The translations under genes were made by a program, and so were the position numbers. Shown here piece by piece: positions 786 to 15,630 of a stretch of 21,355 nucleotides of DNA. Every line of letters starts with the position of its first letter. The first letter of the stretch is position 1. The notes below the pieces were generated by a model. That model saw nothing but the letters and a program-made list of their open reading frames with translations, ran no database searches and was not told the DNA's origin. This DNA is from a virus: positions 1-21,355 of IMG/VR virus record IMGVR_UViG_3300043119_000724. One strand, written 5' to 3'.

Positions 786-1127
786 TTATACTATTGGATC
801 AACAGGTACAATAAGGTCTACTGGTGGGGGTGTGTATTGTGTAAATACTGAATTTGAATTGATTGGTGTAGCATCTTTTAGATTATCAATCACAAAGTGA
901 TCTAAGGCATCAATTAGTTGTGTGTAAGCATCTGTGATGGCAGGATCATAAGTTAATGTGCTTTTATCAATGTTTTGATAACCAACTGCTCCTCCTGCTC
1001 CTGCAATCATAACATCCATTGATATTTGTCCTGCATATTGAAGGTGAGGAATTAAAGTTAAAAGTGGTGATTCGTAAATCAATCCTGATTGGGGGTTTTG
1101 GAAAAATCCTGTTACTTGTACTGCCAT
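786..1127 (-). CDS. Hypothetical 113-aa protein at the end of the fibre cluster
   Basis: A 113-residue protein that starts 13 nt after the first LamG gene upstream, behind an A/T-only leader (AAAAACAAAAACAAA before ATG). Residues about 35-50 form a Gly/Ala-rich hydrophobic stretch (MIAGAGGAVGY), residues about 60-85 look helical, and the C-terminus is Pro/Val/Asp-rich with a repeated IVPVDPIV-like ending. It is not clearly a transmembrane protein. I do not recognise the family. Being last in a row of receptor-type proteins, it may be a fibre-tip, trimerisation or attachment component, but nothing in the sequence proves that. Confidence 0.65.
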   Translation of the reverse strand: MAVQVTGFFQNPQSGLIYESPLLTLIPHLQYAGQISMDVMIAGAGGAVGYQNIDKSTLTYDPAITDAYTQLIDALDHFVIDNLKDATPINSNSVFTQYTPPPVDLIVPVDPIV

Positions 1128-1140
1128 TTTGTTTTTGTTT

Positions 1141-1833
1141 TTAAGTTAAATTAAATCTTGTTTTTGTTGCGTTATAGTTTTGTAGTACTTCTTGGGCTGA
1201 GAGTGCTCTGTTGTATATTTGGGTTGAAGCTATTCGGCCTGGGAATCTGATAGGGGTTCCTGTTATACTTGTTCCTAATCTATTATACAAAGCATTATTT
1301 GTTAAGGTATTAGTATTAGCACTTGCAAACGGTGTTTGTAAAATACCGTTCACATAAATTGATAGGGTATATGGTGATCCCGCTAGGGCTGTCCCAACTA
1401 TATAATACCAGGTGTTAGTAGATAGTGAAGTGTTTATACTCATATAACCTGCATTTACTGCTATAAAAAGTCTATTTGTATTGTCTATAGCTAGTGTATA
1501 TCCAGCTGTCCCACTACCTAAATTACCACCATCAACTAAAGGTCTAAATGCACTATTTAGTGTTGTTATATTAAAATAACAAGCAAGAGAAAAAGAAGAG
1601 TTGTTTGGTATACTATTTGTAGCAGTTTGTACATAATCATTAGTTCCATCAAAAACAATTGCTCCGCCATTTTGATTACTATACCCAGAACCACTTACCA
1701 ACGTTCCATTATTCCCATTCCCACTCATATCACTCCAAGTGGTAGAACCACTAACATATGATTTCGAATTAGCAGCATCTAAATACAATACTAATCCATT
1801 TGTAACTATATTATTTCTTGTACTTACTGCCAT
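1141..1833 (-). CDS. LamG/concanavalin A-like lectin-fold protein, paralogue 1
   Basis: This 230-residue protein has the hallmarks of a LamG_3/concanavalin A-like jelly-roll domain spanning nearly its whole length: the N-terminal LVLYLDAANSKSYVSGS segment (about 14-30), W-x-D-x-SGNGNNGTL (about 33-44), an FDGTNDYV strand (about 61-68), an NTWYYIVGT strand in the middle and a GRIASTQIYNRALSAQEV strand-helix close near the end. Known proteins of this fold bind carbohydrates or act as decoration domains; here a host-surface glycan-binding role is inferred. It is the third of three tandem paralogues; its ends match the other two closely while the centre is different. It starts 1 nt beyond the stop of the upstream paralogue. 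Confidence 0.85.
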   Translation of the reverse strand: MAVSTRNNIVTNGLVLYLDAANSKSYVSGSTTWSDMSGNGNNGTLVSGSGYSNQNGGAIVFDGTNDYVQTATNSIPNNSSFSLACYFNITTLNSAFRPLVDGGNLGSGTAGYTLAIDNTNRLFIAVNAGYMSINTSLSTNTWYYIVGTALAGSPYTLSIYVNGILQTPFASANTNTLTNNALYNRLGTSITGTPIRFPGRIASTQIYNRALSAQEVLQNYNATKTRFNLT

Positions 1834-1834
1834 A

Positions 1835-2569
1835 TTATGATAATGCGAATCTAGATTTTAATGCGTTGTAGTTTTGTGTTACTTCTGTGGCTGAGAGTGC
1901 TCTGTTGTAAATTCTTACTATAGCGTTATCGGCATTTGTGTAAAGGGCGTTTAAATTTGAATTATTGATTCTTAAGTTTCTACCAACATTATTTATAACA
2001 GAAGATGATGTAAATCCTGATGGACTTACGTTTTGCTTTAATACTCCATTAAGATATGTTTGCAGCGCACCTCCACTCCTTACTCCCACTAATTGATACC
2101 AAGTGTTTAAAGATAGTGGTTCTGAGCTTTCTCCTGTCCCGTATGCTGTTGTCCCTACTTCTACTACGAAACCGTATGTGTCACCAGTTCCATTAGTACC
2201 ATTTCCTATGAGTAACAACCATTCATTGGAACTTGGACCAGCACCACTATTCCATTTGTTAGGTCCCCATATATTATCGTAGCCAGCTGATGTAGTTAGT
2301 TTCCTAAACCAGTATTCCACAGTAAAATTATTTGCTCCAAAATCTAATGATGTGTTATCAATAACCTCAATATAGTCATTAGTACCATCACATCTTATAT
2401 ACCCCCCATTCTGACTACTGAAGGTGGGTCCGTTAATTAAACTGCCACTATTGTTATTACCACTCACATCATTCCACACAGTGGATCCAGATACATATGA
2501 TTTAGTATTAGCAGCATCTAAATTTAAAACTAATCCGTTTGTTACTATGGGTGGTGTTCCGTAATACAT
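1835..2569 (-). CDS. LamG/concanavalin A-like lectin-fold protein, paralogue 2
   Basis: A 244-residue protein built like its two neighbours: LVLNLDAANTKSYVSGS at about residues 13-29, W-N-D-V-SGNNNSGSL at about 32-43, a CDGTNDYIEV strand at about 60-69, a long variable middle (about 70-205), then VRIYNRALSATEVTQNYNA at about 217-235. The middle contains FTVEYWF and NTWYQLVGVR strands typical of LamG_3 domains. No signal peptide or membrane segment is present, as expected of a phage virion protein. It is 3 nt downstream of paralogue 3 and 1 nt upstream of paralogue 1, so the three are almost certainly co-transcribed. Glycan binding on the host surface is the likely role by family, not shown directly. 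Confidence 0.85.
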   Translation of the reverse strand: MYYGTPPIVTNGLVLNLDAANTKSYVSGSTVWNDVSGNNNSGSLINGPTFSSQNGGYIRCDGTNDYIEVIDNTSLDFGANNFTVEYWFRKLTTSAGYDNIWGPNKWNSGAGPSSNEWLLLIGNGTNGTGDTYGFVVEVGTTAYGTGESSEPLSLNTWYQLVGVRSGGALQTYLNGVLKQNVSPSGFTSSSVINNVGRNLRINNSNLNALYTNADNAIVRIYNRALSATEVTQNYNALKSRFALS

Positions 2570-2572
2570 AAT

Positions 2573-3289
2573 TTATGATAAGTTAAAACGGGTTTTTAAT
2601 GCATCGTAATTTTGTTTGACTTCTTGGGCTGATAGTGCTCTGTTATAGGTTTGTATGTTTGATATTTTACCTTTAAAATTAATAGCGTATGCAGGGTCAG
2701 AAGTACTATCAGTAATATCAAATGATCCATTTACTGTATTTATATTACGTTCTAATCCAGCATCAGCTACACCATTTTTGTAAATAGTTAATCTTGGGAA
2801 GGATACTCCTGTTGTAACAGTTATTGCAACATGATTCCAAATATCTCTATCTATTGAAAATGTTGATACATAGTTTATAACATTTCCCCATAAAATAAAT
2901 TTTCTATTATTATAAGTAGTACCTCCGACTGAAAGCATGAAGAACTGCCCATTTGAGTTATTACCATACCCAAATAGAGGAGATAAATCTCCAACATAGT
3001 CGGTGGATGAGTTATCTTGTACCCACCCCATCATAGTTCTATTTGATGTTCCTGTTGGTAGAGTTGATAGTACTCCTAAAGAAGCGTAATTAGTTGTCCC
3101 GTTAAATACAATACTACCACCGTTTGTAGGATCAAAAGCAGGGTTACTAAACAATGATCCAGTATACCCATTTCCACTCATATCATTCCAAATAGTGGAA
3201 CCACTTACATATGATCTTCTATTGGCAGCATCTAGATGTAAAACTAACCCACTAGTTACTATTGGAGGTGTATTTTTAAATATTGCCAT
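2573..3289 (-). CDS. LamG/concanavalin A-like lectin-fold protein, paralogue 3
   Basis: A 238-residue protein and the first translated of the LamG trio. Conserved parts are LVLHLDAANRRSYVSGS (about 16-32), W-N-D-M-SGNGYTGSL (about 35-46), an FNGTTNYASL strand (about 63-72), MMGWVQD and IWNHVAITV strands in the middle, and IQTYNRALSAQEVKQNYDA towards the C-terminus. The central third is strongly diverged from the other two copies. It follows the large fibre gene by 9 nt. A TATTTATA octamer lies inside the end of that fibre gene, 44 nt before this start, and could give the LamG genes their own transcript. A receptor-binding or fibre-decoration role is inferred from fold and position. Confidence 0.85.
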   Translation of the reverse strand: MAIFKNTPPIVTSGLVLHLDAANRRSYVSGSTIWNDMSGNGYTGSLFSNPAFDPTNGGSIVFNGTTNYASLGVLSTLPTGTSNRTMMGWVQDNSSTDYVGDLSPLFGYGNNSNGQFFMLSVGGTTYNNRKFILWGNVINYVSTFSIDRDIWNHVAITVTTGVSFPRLTIYKNGVADAGLERNINTVNGSFDITDSTSDPAYAINFKGKISNIQTYNRALSAQEVKQNYDALKTRFNLS

Positions 3290-3298
3290 AACTAAATT

Positions 3299-6184
3299 TT
3301 AAAAGAAACTTGCACTCATGTACCTTGTTCCATTATAAATAAATAATAAAGATCCTGACCAATAAGCACTTCCTGTTTGAGGAGTTGCTGATTGTGATAG
3401 TGGTAGTATGAATGAACCTGATACTTGTAAAGTACCATTTATGTTAACTTGTGATCCTGTTTTCTCAAGAACAACTCTTGGGAAATCATATATCTTAACT
3501 CCCCAATCTGAAGTTGCTTCTATGATTGGTAAACCTGAAACATCATTTACCATGTAAATGGAACCTGACGTTACATCAGTAACTGTAAGTTGTGATCCAG
3601 CTGAAGTTGATCCAAAATCTGCAATTATGTTTGTACCACCAGTTGCTGTTGCATTACTTGAGGTAAAAGTAGCTGCTACTCTAAAAGCAGTTTCAGTTTG
3701 TGATCCTGTTGTTTGGAAGAATGTTGGTGTAATGTTTACACCATAATACTGTCCTCCAACTACTGCTGAGGCAGATATGATTGGTGATATACTAAAGGCA
3801 GATTGTGATACTGCAAGTGACATTGTAGGTGAAGTAAAAGATACTTGACCTATATCGTTTATTGTAAGTAGGTTGGTTGGTGTTGAGTTTTGGAGTAGGA
3901 ATGTGGTTGTGGCTGAAGTTGCGCCTGAGCCTTTAACTGTTAGTTTTGCTAAGTCTGTTGTGGTGTTTAGTAAAAAGTTTCCGTTTCCTTTTACTCTTAA
4001 TTTTTCATCACTTGTTCCTCTTAAAACAAAATCCCATCCATTTCCTGATGCAAAGGAAAATCCTGTTGCAGGAGAAGATTTATAGTAAGTAACAACACCA
4101 CCTCCTAAATCTAAATCAGTACTAGAAACCTTTAAAGTAGTTATTCCTGTGCTGTTAAATGAAATATTATTTGTTGAGTTTCCAATTGCAAACTCCCAAG
4201 AAGACAACCATCCTGTTGGATTTATAAAAAATCTATATCCTCCTGCTGCGTGTAGTGTGCCAAACAACTCGTAAGCACTACCAAATTGGATTGTATTGTT
4301 TGAAGTATCGGTATAGTATTTTTTTGTAAATACCCCACCATCTAAATATAATTTAGTAACAGGCGCATTTGTTCCAATCCCAACATTACCCGAACCACTT
4401 ACAAATACAATACTTGAAGAGGCTGGTGAGTCTATTCTTAATAGATTAGCTGATGAAGCACCTGAGATGTGAAGGGATGCTGAGGGGGTTGTTGTCCCTA
4501 TACCTACATTTCCTCCACCACCATTTAGTAGTAAACTTGTTCCGTTTGCAGATAAGTATGCGTAAGTACTACCGTCTCCTAGTCGTATACCACCTACACC
4601 ATTTGGTCCCATGGTACTGTTGTATCCAACAATATTTTGAGTAAGTCCAACTCTATTGGAAGTGTTGTAACCTACATCAAATGTTCCTGAGTTTGTTTTA
4701 ACAAATGATGTATCTGCTCCTCTGACTTCTAGTTGAGATCCTGGTGTTGAAGTTCCAACACCTACTCTACTTCCACTTACATATAAAGTACCATCTACGT
4801 TTAGTGAACCTGCAGTACCTGATCCTGTTACGAGAAGTTTGTGTCCTGTGTCTGTTGTACTGTTTATTAGAACATTACCTGTTGATTGGGCTATAATCAT
4901 TAACTTATTAGCTCCACTTCCAAAATACATATGCCCAAAAGAAGGAGTCAAGTAAGTTGACCCAATATACATACCATTTGCCCTTGCTCCACTTTTCCAT
5001 AAATAAATAATAGATGAATCACCACCAACGTCTAGAGTACCTGCTATACCTACGTTTGTGTTTAATTCTGCACCGTGACTTAAAGTAGAGTTATATTGAG
5101 CATAAGAACTTCCTATTTTTAAACTTAAATTTTTGACACCTGTAAAAGCGCCATTTGTAAAAGTTGGTGAAATATCTAAACCTGCAAGTGTGTCGCTGTT
5201 TGCAGCAGCTACTAAAGTTGAGTTAATATTTACCCCCCTTGCAATAGAACTTGTAGCAGTTGTTGAACCTGAGATGTGAAGTAATGCAGAGGGGTTGTTT
5301 GTTCCAATTCCAACGTATGCTGTTGTAGCAGGTATAGCTATTGCAGTAGTTCCTTGGGAAATACTTCCCCCTAAGTACGTAGTTCCTGACAGGTCTGTGT
5401 TCTTAACATAAACATCTTGGTATCTTCCTGGGAGTATTTTGAATCCAATACTGTCTTGTTCGATTCTTCCCCAATAGTTTGAATTATATCCGCCAACGTT
5501 TCCAGTAAGTCTAAACCACATTTGTGTTTTGTAGTTACCTGTAGCATCACTTCCACCATCTTTTACTTGAATGATTCCATCATTACCTGCTCCATAAGTT
5601 GCTGCGTATGGAAAAGATGTTCCTATTGCAAAACTAGCAGATGAAAATCTAGCTGAACCTGATACATCTAAGGATGCTGAAGGTGTTGAAGTTCCTATAC
5701 CAACACTACCACTTACTTCAAAAATTCCAGAAGAAGTAATATGATCACCACCCTGTCCTTTCATCAAAGCATTTAGAGTAGTACCTTGCTCATTTCCAAT
5801 TCCTGAAGAGTTTCTAGGACCAGAAATTAACATACCACCATCGTAAGATGATCCTGATGGGTTAGAATAAATCCATCTATTGTTTAATGAATCCCAAAAG
5901 ATTGATCCAGTTGAACTGTTACCAAACGATCCTGAATCAACTACTGTTATTCCTCCAAATCTAGTGGCTGGATTGTCTGTGTTGAGTGTGATTATGTTTG
6001 ACCCAACTTGAACAATTGATGCTGTTGAGTAAGTAAAAGATGAAGTTCCTATTACACTTAAGTTACCAACAATGCTAACATCTTGGGTTAGTGGTCCAAT
6101 AGAAGAGGCATATGAAGCAGTACCAAATAAAGATCCTGTTAAATTTGCACTTATTTGTTTGCTTTGAATTAACTTTAATGACAT
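3299..6184 (-). CDS. Large tail-fibre-like protein with VGIGT-type repeats
   Basis: A 961-residue Ser/Gly/Thr/Asn-rich protein, the largest here. It contains five spaced copies of a (N)VGIGTxxPSAxLxxSG unit beginning at about residues 161, 291, 474, 560 and 601, with degenerate versions such as NVLINSTTDTGHKLLV near 437. These units occur in phage and bacterial beta-helical or trimeric fibre proteins and separate longer variable segments. The N-terminus (NLTGSLFGTASYASS, about 14-28) may be the virion-attachment end; the C-terminus ends in a short strand segment (SGSLLFIYNGTRYMSASFF). I see no S74-type intramolecular chaperone signature at the C-terminus. It lies 5 nt after the gp15-like gene and 9 nt before the LamG genes, consistent with a host-recognition cassette. 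Exact fibre type (long, short or baseplate) is unknown. Confidence 0.8.
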   Translation of the reverse strand: MSLKLIQSKQISANLTGSLFGTASYASSIGPLTQDVSIVGNLSVIGTSSFTYSTASIVQVGSNIITLNTDNPATRFGGITVVDSGSFGNSSTGSIFWDSLNNRWIYSNPSGSSYDGGMLISGPRNSSGIGNEQGTTLNALMKGQGGDHITSSGIFEVSGSVGIGTSTPSASLDVSGSARFSSASFAIGTSFPYAATYGAGNDGIIQVKDGGSDATGNYKTQMWFRLTGNVGGYNSNYWGRIEQDSIGFKILPGRYQDVYVKNTDLSGTTYLGGSISQGTTAIAIPATTAYVGIGTNNPSALLHISGSTTATSSIARGVNINSTLVAAANSDTLAGLDISPTFTNGAFTGVKNLSLKIGSSYAQYNSTLSHGAELNTNVGIAGTLDVGGDSSIIYLWKSGARANGMYIGSTYLTPSFGHMYFGSGANKLMIIAQSTGNVLINSTTDTGHKLLVTGSGTAGSLNVDGTLYVSGSRVGVGTSTPGSQLEVRGADTSFVKTNSGTFDVGYNTSNRVGLTQNIVGYNSTMGPNGVGGIRLGDGSTYAYLSANGTSLLLNGGGGNVGIGTTTPSASLHISGASSANLLRIDSPASSSIVFVSGSGNVGIGTNAPVTKLYLDGGVFTKKYYTDTSNNTIQFGSAYELFGTLHAAGGYRFFINPTGWLSSWEFAIGNSTNNISFNSTGITTLKVSSTDLDLGGGVVTYYKSSPATGFSFASGNGWDFVLRGTSDEKLRVKGNGNFLLNTTTDLAKLTVKGSGATSATTTFLLQNSTPTNLLTINDIGQVSFTSPTMSLAVSQSAFSISPIISASAVVGGQYYGVNITPTFFQTTGSQTETAFRVAATFTSSNATATGGTNIIADFGSTSAGSQLTVTDVTSGSIYMVNDVSGLPIIEATSDWGVKIYDFPRVVLEKTGSQVNINGTLQVSGSFILPLSQSATPQTGSAYWSGSLLFIYNGTRYMSASFF
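3334..3341 (-). promoter_or_regulatory. TATTTATA octamer inside the fibre gene end, upstream of the LamG trio
   Basis: The minus strand reads TATT-TATTTATA-ATGG within the codons for the C-terminal LLFIYNG of the fibre. It lies 44 nt before the ATG at 3289. It may be an internal promoter for the receptor-type genes or a chance match forced by the protein code. Confidence 0.25.
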
Positions 6185-6189
6185 ATCTC

Positions 6190-7407
6190 TTAACTAAATT
6201 TACCTACTAATATTACCTGGTCTGATGAATCTAAGGCAAAACCTAAATCAAGAAATGCAACTCTTATGTTACTTCCTGATTGTTGTGTTGTTCTATTTGC
6301 TGTTGGAATTGGAACACCATTTATGTAAACAGTAAAGTCTGCTTCTGTTATGGCTGGGAATCCGTCTGGTGGAGTAGCTATTGTCCTGTTATTGAATGTA
6401 GCGTCATCGGTGATAACTAAATCGGCTACTGCTGTTGTTACCAATCCTACATAAGCTATTTGCTCTGCTGTCATTCCTGATCCTCCTGTTGATCCTCCTG
6501 CTGGAGCAGCGTCAAAGAATCTACTTGGTGCTGCTGAGGCTGGTGTAGATGCTTTAGCATTTAAAATTTCACTTGATCCTGCTGTTTCTAAACTAAACCT
6601 AACTGCTGCTTTAGAGAAGTACTTATTTGAGTTTCCAATATTTGTATTAATAGAATCCGGTACAATGTACCCTGCTATCTTAATTTGAAACGAAGTCTTA
6701 ACCGTTCTATCACCTCCTTGTACCAATTCAGTTACTGTTGTATAAGTATCAATTGCAGCTCTAAATTTGAATCTTTCCGGATCACCCCAATATGAGTCTG
6801 ATGCAAAGTTAATTGATTCCACTATATTGTTCATTTGCTCTACATACTCTGTAAATACAGTGCAAGAGTAGACTAAATTAACATAGTCTGGCATAATTAC
6901 TCCGTAGTATTCTGTAACAGCCTCTCTGTTATTTAATGCAGCAAAGTTATCGTAGAAATTCTTTTGCGAGTATCTTTTTTGAAAAATACCAAAATGATTT
7001 GGATTATTTGCATCCAATTTATTACCTAGAGTTCTATTTTTTTCAACAGAATCTCTTTTAAACATAATAAGTGGAGTCTGGATTTTGCCATTATTGTCTC
7101 TGTAAAACCCATCTTTCTGCATTGCAGCCCATCTTTCTGGTGAACCATACAGTACCGGTACGTTTATTTTAGTTCCATTTTGAATAACTGATGGTCTGAT
7201 TACGTTGTTAAAGTAGTAAAAGATTGCCTCATCTGCGTCTTTTAGTCCAACTGAGAATTGTTTTACATCGTCATTCTTTCTAGTTCTCTGATTTTCTCTT
7301 TTTTTAGTAGAAGGTACAGGAGCCTTGCCGTTATTCAAATACGGTTCGATAGTGTCTTGAGATATCTCGACTTGTGATTTCGGTATTGGTTTTCTTGATG
7401 TGGCCAT
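6190..7407 (-). CDS. gp15-like tail completion / sheath-terminator protein with extra C-terminal domain
   Basis: A 405-residue protein. Residues about 50-275 match the T4 gp15 pattern as I remember it: a YYFNNVIRPSV start, INVPVLYGSPERWAAM (81-96), LVYSCTVFTEYVEQMNNIVES (178-198) and TVKTSFQIKIAGYIVPD (235-251). In T4, gp15 caps the tail tube and sheath and joins the tail to the head neck. T4 gp15 is about 270 residues; here a Gly/Ser/Ala linker (about 285-311) leads to an additional domain of about 95 residues with strands such as DFTVYINGVPIP and DSSDQVILVGKF. The basic N-terminus (1-50) is also extra. The start overlaps the upstream stop as TAATG, so it is coupled with the neck genes. Family assignment is by pattern, without a search. 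Confidence 0.7.
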   Translation of the reverse strand: MATSRKPIPKSQVEISQDTIEPYLNNGKAPVPSTKKRENQRTRKNDDVKQFSVGLKDADEAIFYYFNNVIRPSVIQNGTKINVPVLYGSPERWAAMQKDGFYRDNNGKIQTPLIMFKRDSVEKNRTLGNKLDANNPNHFGIFQKRYSQKNFYDNFAALNNREAVTEYYGVIMPDYVNLVYSCTVFTEYVEQMNNIVESINFASDSYWGDPERFKFRAAIDTYTTVTELVQGGDRTVKTSFQIKIAGYIVPDSINTNIGNSNKYFSKAAVRFSLETAGSSEILNAKASTPASAAPSRFFDAAPAGGSTGGSGMTAEQIAYVGLVTTAVADLVITDDATFNNRTIATPPDGFPAITEADFTVYINGVPIPTANRTTQQSGSNIRVAFLDLGFALDSSDQVILVGKFS

Positions 7408-13208: not shown

Positions 13209-13786
13209 TATGCTCTTAATATGTTGTTAATAATTGAATCTAACTTATCGTATTTTCCTACTGTTTGTTTTCCTTCGTTCAAAGAGATTGGATTCATAAA
13301 AGCTCCTTGAGTGGATGGATTTGATACAAAGTCCCAGCATACTAATTCAAAGTCCGGCTGTACCATTAAAGTACCTTCGTTTGTCTGTGTTACCGATCCT
13401 GTTCCTCTTGAAGAAATTCCTATTGTATGTCCTCCTTTTAGAATCTCTTTTACGATGTTTCCTGAGGGTGTGTTTAATAGTTCTACTTTACCCATTAGGT
13501 CGTCTCCCTCCCACCATAATTCTTTTACTACATGGGATGCATTTTTTAAAGATACAATAGCAGATTCTGGATGGTCTAATTCACCATAAGCATTACCTAC
13601 TTTAACAAAGTTCTCAATGTATTTTTGAACTTCTTGTTCAAGAATGTCTCTTTTATAGATTCTTCCATTTTGGTTCTTGGCACCTGCTCTTTGCATGATA
13701 CCTACCACTTCGGAAACACCTGGTCTGGTTTTCGATTCAGTAAGTATCCCTTTGAAAGGAGTTACATTTATTAATAGGTTGTTCAT
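13208..13786 (-). CDS. 21: Prohead maturation protease, T4 gp21-like (U35/S80-type serine protease)
   Basis: A 192-residue protein. Diagnostic blocks are NQNGRIYKRDIL (39-49), GELDHPES with candidate catalytic His72 (68-75), SHVVKELWWEGDDLMGKVEL (84-103), LNTPSGNIVKEIL (104-116) and GHTIGISSRGTG with the catalytic Ser in the ISSRG motif (S125/S126). These are the His and Ser blocks of herpesvirus-assemblin-like phage prohead proteases. T4 gp21 acts inside the procapsid, cutting capsid, core and internal proteins after L/I-x-E and then itself. At 192 residues it is near the T4 length (about 212). The start overlaps the 614-aa gene's stop as TAATG. Substrates are expected among gp22, gp23 and the 73- and 614-aa proteins. 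Confidence 0.92.
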   Translation of the reverse strand: MNNLLINVTPFKGILTESKTRPGVSEVVGIMQRAGAKNQNGRIYKRDILEQEVQKYIENFVKVGNAYGELDHPESAIVSLKNASHVVKELWWEGDDLMGKVELLNTPSGNIVKEILKGGHTIGISSRGTGSVTQTNEGTLMVQPDFELVCWDFVSNPSTQGAFMNPISLNEGKQTVGKYDKLDSIINNILRA

Positions 13787-15630
13787 TATAGTATGTCTTT
13801 TAATGATACTGTTTCAAAGATACTTTCGGTATACATTCCTGTTTTTCCTGTACGTGGCTTAAGTGCTACTACTCCTTTTTCGTCTGGTGATCCTAGGCTA
13901 TATACTTTATCATCTAAATCAGCACCAAGGTAGTTGTTGAAATACCCTACATTAGGGCTTACTTCTTTACCATCTAGTGTATATTTGTACTTTTTATATC
14001 TAGCAAGTTTATCATCATCAGATTCTTCATTTATCCCCTCTCTGTCTGCTTCAAATCTATCCTGGTTTGATAAACTTTTCAAAGCTCCTGCTTTTGCTCT
14101 ATTCAATAAACTTAATAAGTGTTTGTATTCTATACCCTTATTAGTATCTGCTTGAGTTGCTGCTTGCTTGTGTAATCTTTCAAACTTAGAAGGTTCAGTT
14201 TCGTACATTGTCATAAATTTACGAACCATATTCTTATCTGCTTCTGTGTCTGTTTCTTCAAATAAATCATCAAAATTTTCTTCGTCAGTAGCTTCTTCAT
14301 ACCCTCTTGGATGTGAGATATCATCATCTTCAGCTTCGTCTGGTTGATTCATCCAGTGCTGATCATATGGATAATCTGCATAGATTGCTTCAATTCCTCT
14401 ACCATATCCGTAGATTTGATTATCTTCTAAAAATCTTATTAACTCATCTATATTTTCAGCCTCATCTGGACCTGTCATGATATCGTGAATCCTGTCTGTA
14501 TATCCGTAGATTTGGTTATCCTCTAAATAATCTGCTAATTCACTTTTGTAGTATGAATCTTCTTTAGCTTCTTGTAATTCAAATTCTTCGTCTTCTACCG
14601 GCTCTTCATATGATCCGTATTTTTCTTCTCTTTCATATTTTTCTTCATCATCATATAATCCGCTGATTTCTGAATTTTCTTTCAAGATATTCTTAATTAA
14701 CTTTTTAAAGCCCTCTTTTAGTTGTGCTTTTTTTAATCCATTAAAAGTATCTACTGCATTATCTTTCTTTACATCAACCATCTTGTCATGTAGGTCAACT
14801 TTTTTGCTAATTCCTGCTACTTGATTTGTGTAGAAGATTTCATCTTTCTCTAAATTCTTAAGAACTTTAGCTAATGCCTTTTTATATTCTTCCGCCGTTG
14901 GTGTACCGGTTACTTGTAACCCTTCTAACTCAACTCTTAATCCTCTTAAGATTTGCTCATATGGATATTTGTCCATATCGTTAGTTGCTTTGTATCTGTA
15001 ATCTGTTAAGCTTTTATTGGTAAGTCTAGCTTCTTTTAAGCTTTCTGGTTTATTTTTATCTACGTATTTGATAAACTTATTAAGTGCATCTTGTCCTAAA
15101 AGTCCAACCAGTTGCATAATTTGTTTAGGACTTAACCTGTCTAGTCGATCCATCAATTCAGCTTCTGGGTCTCTTCTCTTTTCTTCAGCTACGGGGTACT
15201 CTCTAAACTGATCAATAAATCTTTTTCGAAAGCCTTCGATAGCACCTTTACCTGTACCGGTAATAATATCTCGTACATCGTATTTTTCTGTAGAATTGTT
15301 ATGCTGTCTAACGTAATCGGCTAGCTTTTTTGCATCCAATCCGTTATCGTCTACAAAGTGTTGGGCACCATGTTGACCAACTCCTGTGATTTGATGAATA
15401 TAAGCTGCTTCTGGTGAGATTATTATTTCGGGAGTAGTATCTTCTTGATCAATATCCTGTTCCATAGCCTCTTGAATCATCCCTCTGTTCTTAAGAATTT
15501 GAACAGCATCATCATATCCATTGAAGCGGGTAACTAGGTTAGGTAATTGTAATCTAGCATCTCTTAAGAACTGATCTTTTGAGAATGCTCCTTCATTTAC
15601 TCCGTTATATTTTTCTTGTAATGTTCTCAT
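13786..15630 (-). CDS. Putative prohead core / internal protein with 32-residue repeat
   Basis: A 614-residue, charged, mainly helical protein located where T4 has its small prohead-core genes 67 and 68, between portal and protease. The N-terminus (FSKDQFLRDARLQLPNLVTR, 17-36, then DDAVQILKNRG) looks conserved. The middle (about 320-470) is very acidic and Tyr-rich and contains a tandem duplication: LEDNQIYGY at 369-377 and again at 401-409, 32 residues apart. The C-terminus (from about 540) looks like a small separate beta-rich domain (YKYTLDGKEVSPNVGYF and onwards). Several L/I-x-E sites followed by small residues, such as SLKE-A at 197-201 and ILKE-N near 315, could be cut by the prohead protease. 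I infer a core or packaged internal protein; the family is not named with certainty. Confidence 0.6.
   Translation of the reverse strand: MRTLQEKYNGVNEGAFSKDQFLRDARLQLPNLVTRFNGYDDAVQILKNRGMIQEAMEQDIDQEDTTPEIIISPEAAYIHQITGVGQHGAQHFVDDNGLDAKKLADYVRQHNNSTEKYDVRDIITGTGKGAIEGFRKRFIDQFREYPVAEEKRRDPEAELMDRLDRLSPKQIMQLVGLLGQDALNKFIKYVDKNKPESLKEARLTNKSLTDYRYKATNDMDKYPYEQILRGLRVELEGLQVTGTPTAEEYKKALAKVLKNLEKDEIFYTNQVAGISKKVDLHDKMVDVKKDNAVDTFNGLKKAQLKEGFKKLIKNILKENSEISGLYDDEEKYEREEKYGSYEEPVEDEEFELQEAKEDSYYKSELADYLEDNQIYGYTDRIHDIMTGPDEAENIDELIRFLEDNQIYGYGRGIEAIYADYPYDQHWMNQPDEAEDDDISHPRGYEEATDEENFDDLFEETDTEADKNMVRKFMTMYETEPSKFERLHKQAATQADTNKGIEYKHLLSLLNRAKAGALKSLSNQDRFEADREGINEESDDDKLARYKKYKYTLDGKEVSPNVGYFNNYLGADLDDKVYSLGSPDEKGVVALKPRTGKTGMYTESIFETVSLKDIL
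14404..14526 (-). repeat. Direct repeat (96-nt period) in the 614-aa gene
   Basis: Two 27-nt copies (14404-14430 and 14500-14526) both encode LEDNQIYGY and differ at only a few positions. The 96-nt spacing preserves frame and gives a 32-residue period in the protein, so it looks like a recent internal duplication. Confidence 0.8.

What the first reader, a model, noticed from the sequence alone, without database searches (positions are those of the whole stretch)
1141..3289. Three tandem LamG/concanavalin-like paralogues with conserved ends and diverged centres
Proteins of 230, 244 and 238 residues share an N-terminal LDAANxKSYVSGS block and a C-terminal YNRALSAxEVxQNY block, while their centres differ strongly. 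They are separated by only 1 and 3 nt. This looks like repeated duplication with swapped or fast-evolving binding regions, a possible multi-receptor set for surface glycans.
Basis: partly seen in the sequence, partly recalled or inferred. Interest (0 to 1): 0.6.

Follow-up and report, generated by a model that had tools for sequence, protein, structure and literature searches.

The report
Three phage lectin-fold genes, swappable centres
A tailed virus of bacteria carries, right behind its fibre gene, three genes for lectin-like proteins whose ends stay the same while their middles are exchanged wholesale with other viruses, probably changing which sugars on bacterial surfaces the virus can grip.

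Summary
In detail: three tandem ORFs (230, 244, 238 aa) with gaps of 1 and 3 nt, each a Laminin_G_3 protein. Between the window's paralogues the N-block is 59-65% identical, the centre 18-22% and the C-block 72-84%. This profile is not peculiar to the trio: a set of 173 phage LamG proteins shows it. The three are old paralogues, since silent sites in their N-blocks are saturated. What is special comes from relatives. Near-identical phages differ in the LamG centres (aa ~67-210), which fall to random nucleotide identity inside otherwise 84-99% identical DNA. Conversely, a ~400 nt centre that is essentially 100% identical sits inside different ends, a different slot and unrelated flanks. Centres are therefore replaced by recombination rather than diverging in place. 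Three is the favoured array size (16 of 27 clusters, none larger), and the first ~12 residues tend to mark the slot. The nearest relative carries the fibre + LamG cassette at another genome site. Best reading: a tail-fibre-linked, three-slot adhesin array with interchangeable ligand-binding centres, analogous to T2-type gp38 but built on another fold. Exchange is shown for relatives and inferred for the window. Sugar binding, and a heterotrimeric fibre tip, are inferred only.

The parts
2573..3289 (-). LamG slot 1 (P0003, 238 aa), head MAIFKNTPPIVTSG; N-block ~3086-3289, exchangeable centre ~2657-3085, C-block ~2576-2656
   Evidence: head type shared with slot 1 of L094, L035, L042, L178, L184
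1835..2569 (-). LamG slot 2 (P0002, 244 aa), head MYYGTPPIVTNG; N-block ~2372-2569, exchangeable centre ~1919-2371, C-block ~1838-1918
   Evidence: homologous centre (60-62%) in L175, next to an 89-aa small ORF and glycosyltransferase-like ORFs, whereas the closest N-block (L035 slot 2, 80%) carries an unrelated centre (24%)
1141..1833 (-). LamG slot 3 (P0001, 230 aa), head MAVSTRNNIVTNG; N-block ~1633-1833, exchangeable centre ~1225-1632, C-block ~1144-1224
   Evidence: model pLDDT 90, one jelly roll spanning residues 13-222; N 82%, centre 29%, C 84% against slot 3 of the nearest relative L094
3299..6184 (-). Tail-fibre-like protein (P0004, 961 aa) directly upstream of the array; putative carrier of the LamG proteins
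   Evidence: phrog_18345 and phrog_9942 tail fiber, E ~1e-5; a fibre-like gene precedes most LamG arrays in relatives
786..1127 (-). P0006 (113 aa), conserved small protein directly after the array; moves with the cassette; function unknown
   Evidence: 91% identical in L162 and follows the last array gene in L162, L164, L165, L166, L191; follows a fibre gene directly in L167 and L168; no fold match
6190..7407 (-). P0005 (405 aa), structural gene before the fibre; its last ~110 residues are absent from the relative whose cassette lies elsewhere

Best explanation
The three genes are the adhesin part of a tail-fibre cassette (fibre - three LamG proteins - P0006) of a tailed phage related to Flavobacterium phage immuto. 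Each LamG is one jelly-roll domain. Its first ~12 residues mark the slot, its N-block and C-block form a constant frame, and the stretch between (aa ~67-210) is the variable, probably ligand-binding part. Homologous recombination between co-infecting phages, with crossovers in or next to the constant blocks, replaces the centre of one slot while leaving the rest of the virion genes intact, so specificity can change one slot at a time. Shown in relatives: centre replacement, transfer between different phages and slots, an array size peaking at three, and a cassette at another genome site. Inferred for the window: that its own centres were acquired the same way. Inferred overall: that the proteins sit on the fibre, bind surface glycans, and that homologous recombination (not another enzyme) does the exchange.
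For: Replacement: L073 vs L081 are 97-100% identical around slot 1 and 93-100% through slots 2 and 3, while slot 1 falls to 32-47% for ~460 nt with both ends mostly 88-100%; L035 vs L042 show it in all three slots, L010 vs L049 in at least slot 1. Fitted breakpoints lie mostly at aa 65-69 and 208-229. Silent sites in the swapped pairs' ends are 83-95% identical, their centres mostly at background. Converse: L191 and L165 share ~400 nt of centre at ~100% with a 48% N-block, other slots and ~38% flanks; L080/L178 and L198/L203 similar. Of 81 pairs with N-blocks 80-90% identical, 78 have centres under 35%. Within 203 same-array pairs no two centres exceed 35%. The head finds its best match in the same slot in 76/114 cases (chance 1/3), N-block 39%, C-block 36%; slot effect in the N-block reached by 0/500 permutations, none in the centre. 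Array size: 16/27 stand-alone clusters have three, none more. Fold: AbnA domain 4, an arabinan-binding module, Z 22 over 189 residues. Context: fibre families, 'structural protein' annotation in immuto.
Against: No binding or virion location has been tested; the fold also serves non-sugar roles, and 'structural protein' is only a GenBank annotation. Conserved ends are a general feature of the LamG family seen here, so they need not be an attachment face. No donor was found for two of the window's three centres. Most swap cases come from metagenome contigs. Array size varies (1, 2, 4, 6, 9 also seen), arrays are related by descent, and one-of-each head composition depends on the clustering cut (25/27 at one cut, no better than chance at two others).
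Confidence: 0.72

Rival explanations
1. The centres diverge in place by fast point mutation under diversifying selection; no exchange takes place.
For: Low centre identity in general (mean 0.19) and intermediate centre identities (0.5-0.8) in some pairs.
Against: Near-identical phages with silent sites 83-95% identical in the ends but random-level centres with length differences; near-identical centres inside dissimilar ends.
Confidence: 0.05
2. Conserved ends are only the structural signature of the LamG fold; the trio is an ordinary set of diverged paralogues and nothing in the window itself shows exchange.
For: The same end conservation in 173 proteins; N and C termini belong to one jelly roll spanning 13-222; silent sites of the window paralogues' N-blocks saturated.
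Against: Explains the window's profile but not the abrupt centre replacements in relatives, the heads matching by slot, or that loops of the ends are conserved as well as strands (loops 0.60 vs 0.27 in the centre) while even core strands of the centre vary.
Confidence: 0.2
3. Apparent swaps are metagenome assembly chimeras joined at conserved blocks.
For: Breakpoints lie at conserved blocks; most cases are single contigs.
Against: The L025 version recurs in L026 and L028 and the L011 version in L012, from different assemblies; L191/L165 share at most 40 nt exact in the N-block, short for an assembly overlap; L035/L042 would need joins at both ends of each of three genes.
Confidence: 0.06
4. 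The LamG proteins decorate the capsid or another virion part and stick to environmental glycans rather than acting at the fibre tip.
For: phrog_8510, one of the matched families, is filed under head and packaging; in L162 the cassette lies next to head genes.
Against: The array follows a fibre-like gene in the window and most relatives, and in L162 an ORF with weak tail-fibre-assembly similarity precedes that fibre; a tail-family protein sits between the LamGs of L166.
Confidence: 0.15
5. A diversity-generating retroelement rewrites the centres.
For: Phage receptor-binding proteins are main targets of such elements (PMC10743442, abstract).
Against: No reverse transcriptase among the window genes searched; whole ~450 nt centres differ, with length changes, rather than scattered codons.
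Confidence: 0.02

Closest known systems
T2-type gp38 adhesin (T2, PP01, S16) at the gp37 fibre tip
   Same: Separate receptor-binding protein at the tip of the fibre, hypervariable regions flanked by constant motifs, sets receptor specificity (PMC12892980).
   Different: gp38 has a beta-helix plus polyglycine sandwich with short variable loops; here the fold is a jelly roll, there are usually three paralogues, and a block of ~135 residues is replaced.
Shared host-recognition modules of Alteromonas phages A5/V22
   Same: Fibre module passed between distantly related phages; lectin-like heads (PMC10579305).
   Different: Whole fibre/chaperone modules there; here exchange inside one domain and one slot at a time.
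DGR-diversified phage receptor-binding proteins (tentaclins; Mtd from own knowledge)
   Same: Variable ligand-binding face on a constant scaffold (PMC10743442, abstract only).
   Different: No retroelement seen, and replacement of whole segments instead of codon rewriting.
Pfam Laminin_G_3 / LamG proteins of phages (S-SKS1, S-PM2, immuto)
   Same: Same domain and end motifs; immuto has fibre + LamG 220 + LamG 233 + a 458-aa protein with C-terminal LamG.
   Different: In the cyanophages the domains are parts of long proteins; exchange of centres was not found described in the papers searched.
HsdS specificity subunits with exchangeable recognition domains (own knowledge)
   Same: Works like it: constant blocks flank exchangeable specificity segments.
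   Different: Unrelated protein and function.

Membership tests
Laminin_G_3 (ConA-like jelly roll) | Match above the Pfam gathering score | tested here: met
   80.5, 61.3 and 44.2 bits against 27.6
Laminin_G_3 (ConA-like jelly roll) | ConA-like fold | tested here: met
   Model of P0001, pLDDT 90; AbnA domain 4 (5hon_A) Z 22.4, rmsd 2.2 over 189 residues. Not modelled for P0002 and P0003.
Carbohydrate-binding lectin | Binds a sugar | not testable with these tools
   Only the fold is shown
Phage tail-fibre adhesin, gp38-like | Encoded directly beside the fibre gene | tested here: met
Phage tail-fibre adhesin, gp38-like | gp38 fold (beta-helix plus polyglycine sandwich) | tested here: not met
   The model is a jelly roll; the PP01 gp38 description is in PMC12892980. 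Not filed as a gp38.
Phage tail-fibre adhesin, gp38-like | Part of the virion at the fibre tip, sets host range | not testable with these tools
   Only annotation as 'structural protein' in immuto
Diversity-generating retroelement target | Reverse transcriptase and template repeat | tested here: inconclusive
   None among the window ORFs searched, but the record is a 21-kb fragment

The most novel reading that the evidence does not exclude
Probability: 0.22. Interest if true: 0.85.

Novelty: new variant of a known kind. Interest (0 to 1): 0.6.

Why it matters
Receptor-binding proteins usually keep the N-terminus and exchange the C-terminal end (own knowledge). Here the middle of a single domain, including core strands, is exchanged between constant ends, in arrays that usually have three slots. 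If right, this gives a readable map of what aquatic phages bind: centres can be catalogued as interchangeable modules and followed between genomes. It also makes testable why three paralogues are kept and how phages change receptors without rebuilding the fibre.

Tried and rejected
Scans with the centres of P0001 and P0003 alone found no relative in viral contigs, and P0001's centre none in phage records; only P0002's centre has one (L175) plus a weak match in phage DSL-LC04. An exact 44-nt junction of the window was not found in another contig. Cellular genomes gave only distant matches, 26-32%, so no host or prophage array was found. P0006: no family, no fold match, and only one of five models confident. 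Structure matches to neurotoxin binding domains and trans-sialidases reflect the common jelly roll and were not taken as function. Papers: no description of LamG arrays with exchanged centres found; these are word searches of an open-access library, so absence is weak evidence. Recent duplication or gene conversion in the N-blocks of the window's paralogues rejected. The automatic clustering of heads into classes was too threshold-dependent to carry the one-of-each claim.

Full report
WHAT IS THERE. The window is an entire IMG/VR virus record of 21,355 bases. Its main genes run on the minus strand: terminase, portal, head protease, major head protein, PhoH, head-tail adaptor, then P0005, a 961-aa fibre-like protein, three LamG ORFs, and three small proteins. 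The finding's coordinates, lengths and spacings are right. All three proteins are Laminin_G_3. A model of P0001 (pLDDT 90) is one jelly roll whose first and last strands belong to the same domain. The start codons show no clear Shine-Dalgarno sequence and have A/T-rich leaders; with the relation to immuto (P0005 68% identical) this suggests a Bacteroidota host (inference).

IS THE PATTERN SPECIAL? By block the window's paralogues are 59-65% (N), 18-22% (centre) and 72-84% (C) identical. A set of 173 phage LamG proteins gives the same profile: majority-residue frequency 0.60-0.67 over the first ~60 residues, 0.23-0.40 over most of the centre, 0.59-0.77 at the end. In the ends, loops are conserved as well as strands; in the centre even core strands vary. 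So the profile is that of the family. Silent sites in the window's N-blocks are at background (0.47-0.54 vs 0.51), hence old paralogues; the C-blocks are somewhat above background (mean 0.72 vs 0.53), which may hint at exchange there.

CENTRE EXCHANGE IN RELATIVES. L073 and L081 are 97-100% identical around slot 1 and 93-100% through slots 2 and 3, but slot 1 falls to 32-47% between nt ~208 and ~689 of the gene; L035/L042 show the fall in all three genes (one of them starting already at aa 26), L010/L049 in slot 1 and by eye in slot 2. The two-changepoint fit did not apply to L010/L049 slot 2. Silent codons in the ends of such pairs are 83-95% identical while most centres are at background. 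The reverse also exists: L191 and L165 share ~400 nt of centre at ~100% within N-blocks 48% identical, in different slots, with flanks at about 38%. In 232 proteins N-block identity hardly predicts centre identity until above 90%. For the window, P0002's centre is 62% identical in L175, while its closest N-block relative (L035 slot 2) has an unrelated centre; the L175 N-block is 68%, so this is consistent with, but no proof of, exchange in the window's own history.

SLOTS. Complete arrays number 12 with one ORF, 11 with two, 36 with three and 3 larger. After clustering by similarity, stand-alone arrays have 1:4, 2:7, 3:16, none more; a zero-truncated Poisson gives p 3e-5 for the excess of three, a rough guide because arrays are related and copy number was assigned as the commonest in each cluster. 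Some short arrays hold a non-LamG gene between LamGs, such as a 467-aa protein in L166 (tail family) and its look-alike in L191. Heads (residues 1-12) match best to the same slot in 67% of cases, N-block 39%, C-block 36%; the centre's 20% is biased low because array pairs sharing a same-slot centre were left out. In the window's group (L094, L035, L042, L178, L184, window) slots 1-3 start MAI[FY]KN.PP, M[YI]YGTP and MA[VI].TRN in the same order. In other groups two heads change order yet each array seems to keep one of each (L048/L188/L205 against L073/L081/L038/L039; L058 against L088); this is read by eye, and automatic classes gave 25/27 at one threshold but no excess at others.

CASSETTE. 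In the nearest relative (L162/L094; PhoH 99%, P0008 99%, P0007 93%, P0006 91% identical) the fibre-LamG-P0006 cassette lies between PhoH and the adaptor gene, not after P0005; its LamG centres share only 14-29% with the window's, and P0005 lacks its last ~110 residues. The cassette has thus changed both place and content while the backbone stayed.

MECHANISM AND LIMITS. Most likely homologous recombination between co-infecting phages inside the constant blocks (inference). Homing endonuclease genes lie inside or next to some arrays (L078, L181; the L181 assignment is from its sequence start) and might stimulate it; none was seen in the window. Replicate contigs (L025/L026/L028, L011/L012) make assembly chimeras an unlikely general explanation. 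Glycan binding is inferred from the fold, closest to an arabinan-binding module, and from the fibre context.

Noticed in passing
window 786-7407 vs L162/L094: The fibre + three LamG + P0006 cassette occupies two different genome sites in two otherwise closely related phages (after P0005 in the window, between PhoH and the head-tail adaptor in L162), with P0005 shortened by ~110 residues in the latter.
   Followed up: partly
L017:7385-7657 and similar in L036, L079, L088, L030, L048, L175, L181: A conserved ~85-aa protein (NREFMIFNVSELPQIDFTQV...) without convincing family match recurs between or right after LamG genes in many relatives but not in the window; a possible assembly factor.
   Followed up: partly
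L078:6784-7539; L181:723-1463; L051:6741-7319; L023:5182-5892: Homing-endonuclease genes (GIY-YIG type by family match in L078, by sequence start in the others) lie within or beside LamG arrays.
   Followed up: partly
L166:7875-9278 and L191:735-2138: A 467-aa protein matching tail family phrog_5939 (tested in L166) sits between two LamG genes, where other arrays have a third LamG.
   Followed up: partly
window 786-1127: P0006 is 57-91% conserved and in the relatives seen usually sits right after the array or after a fibre gene; no family and no fold match.
   Followed up: partly
L061:3215-10049: Nine LamG ORFs in a row, mostly with start and stop overlapping by one base, in a 316-kb contig.
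   Followed up: no
window 13786-15630: 614-aa protein next to the head protease gene without family match in Pfam or PHROGs.
   Followed up: no
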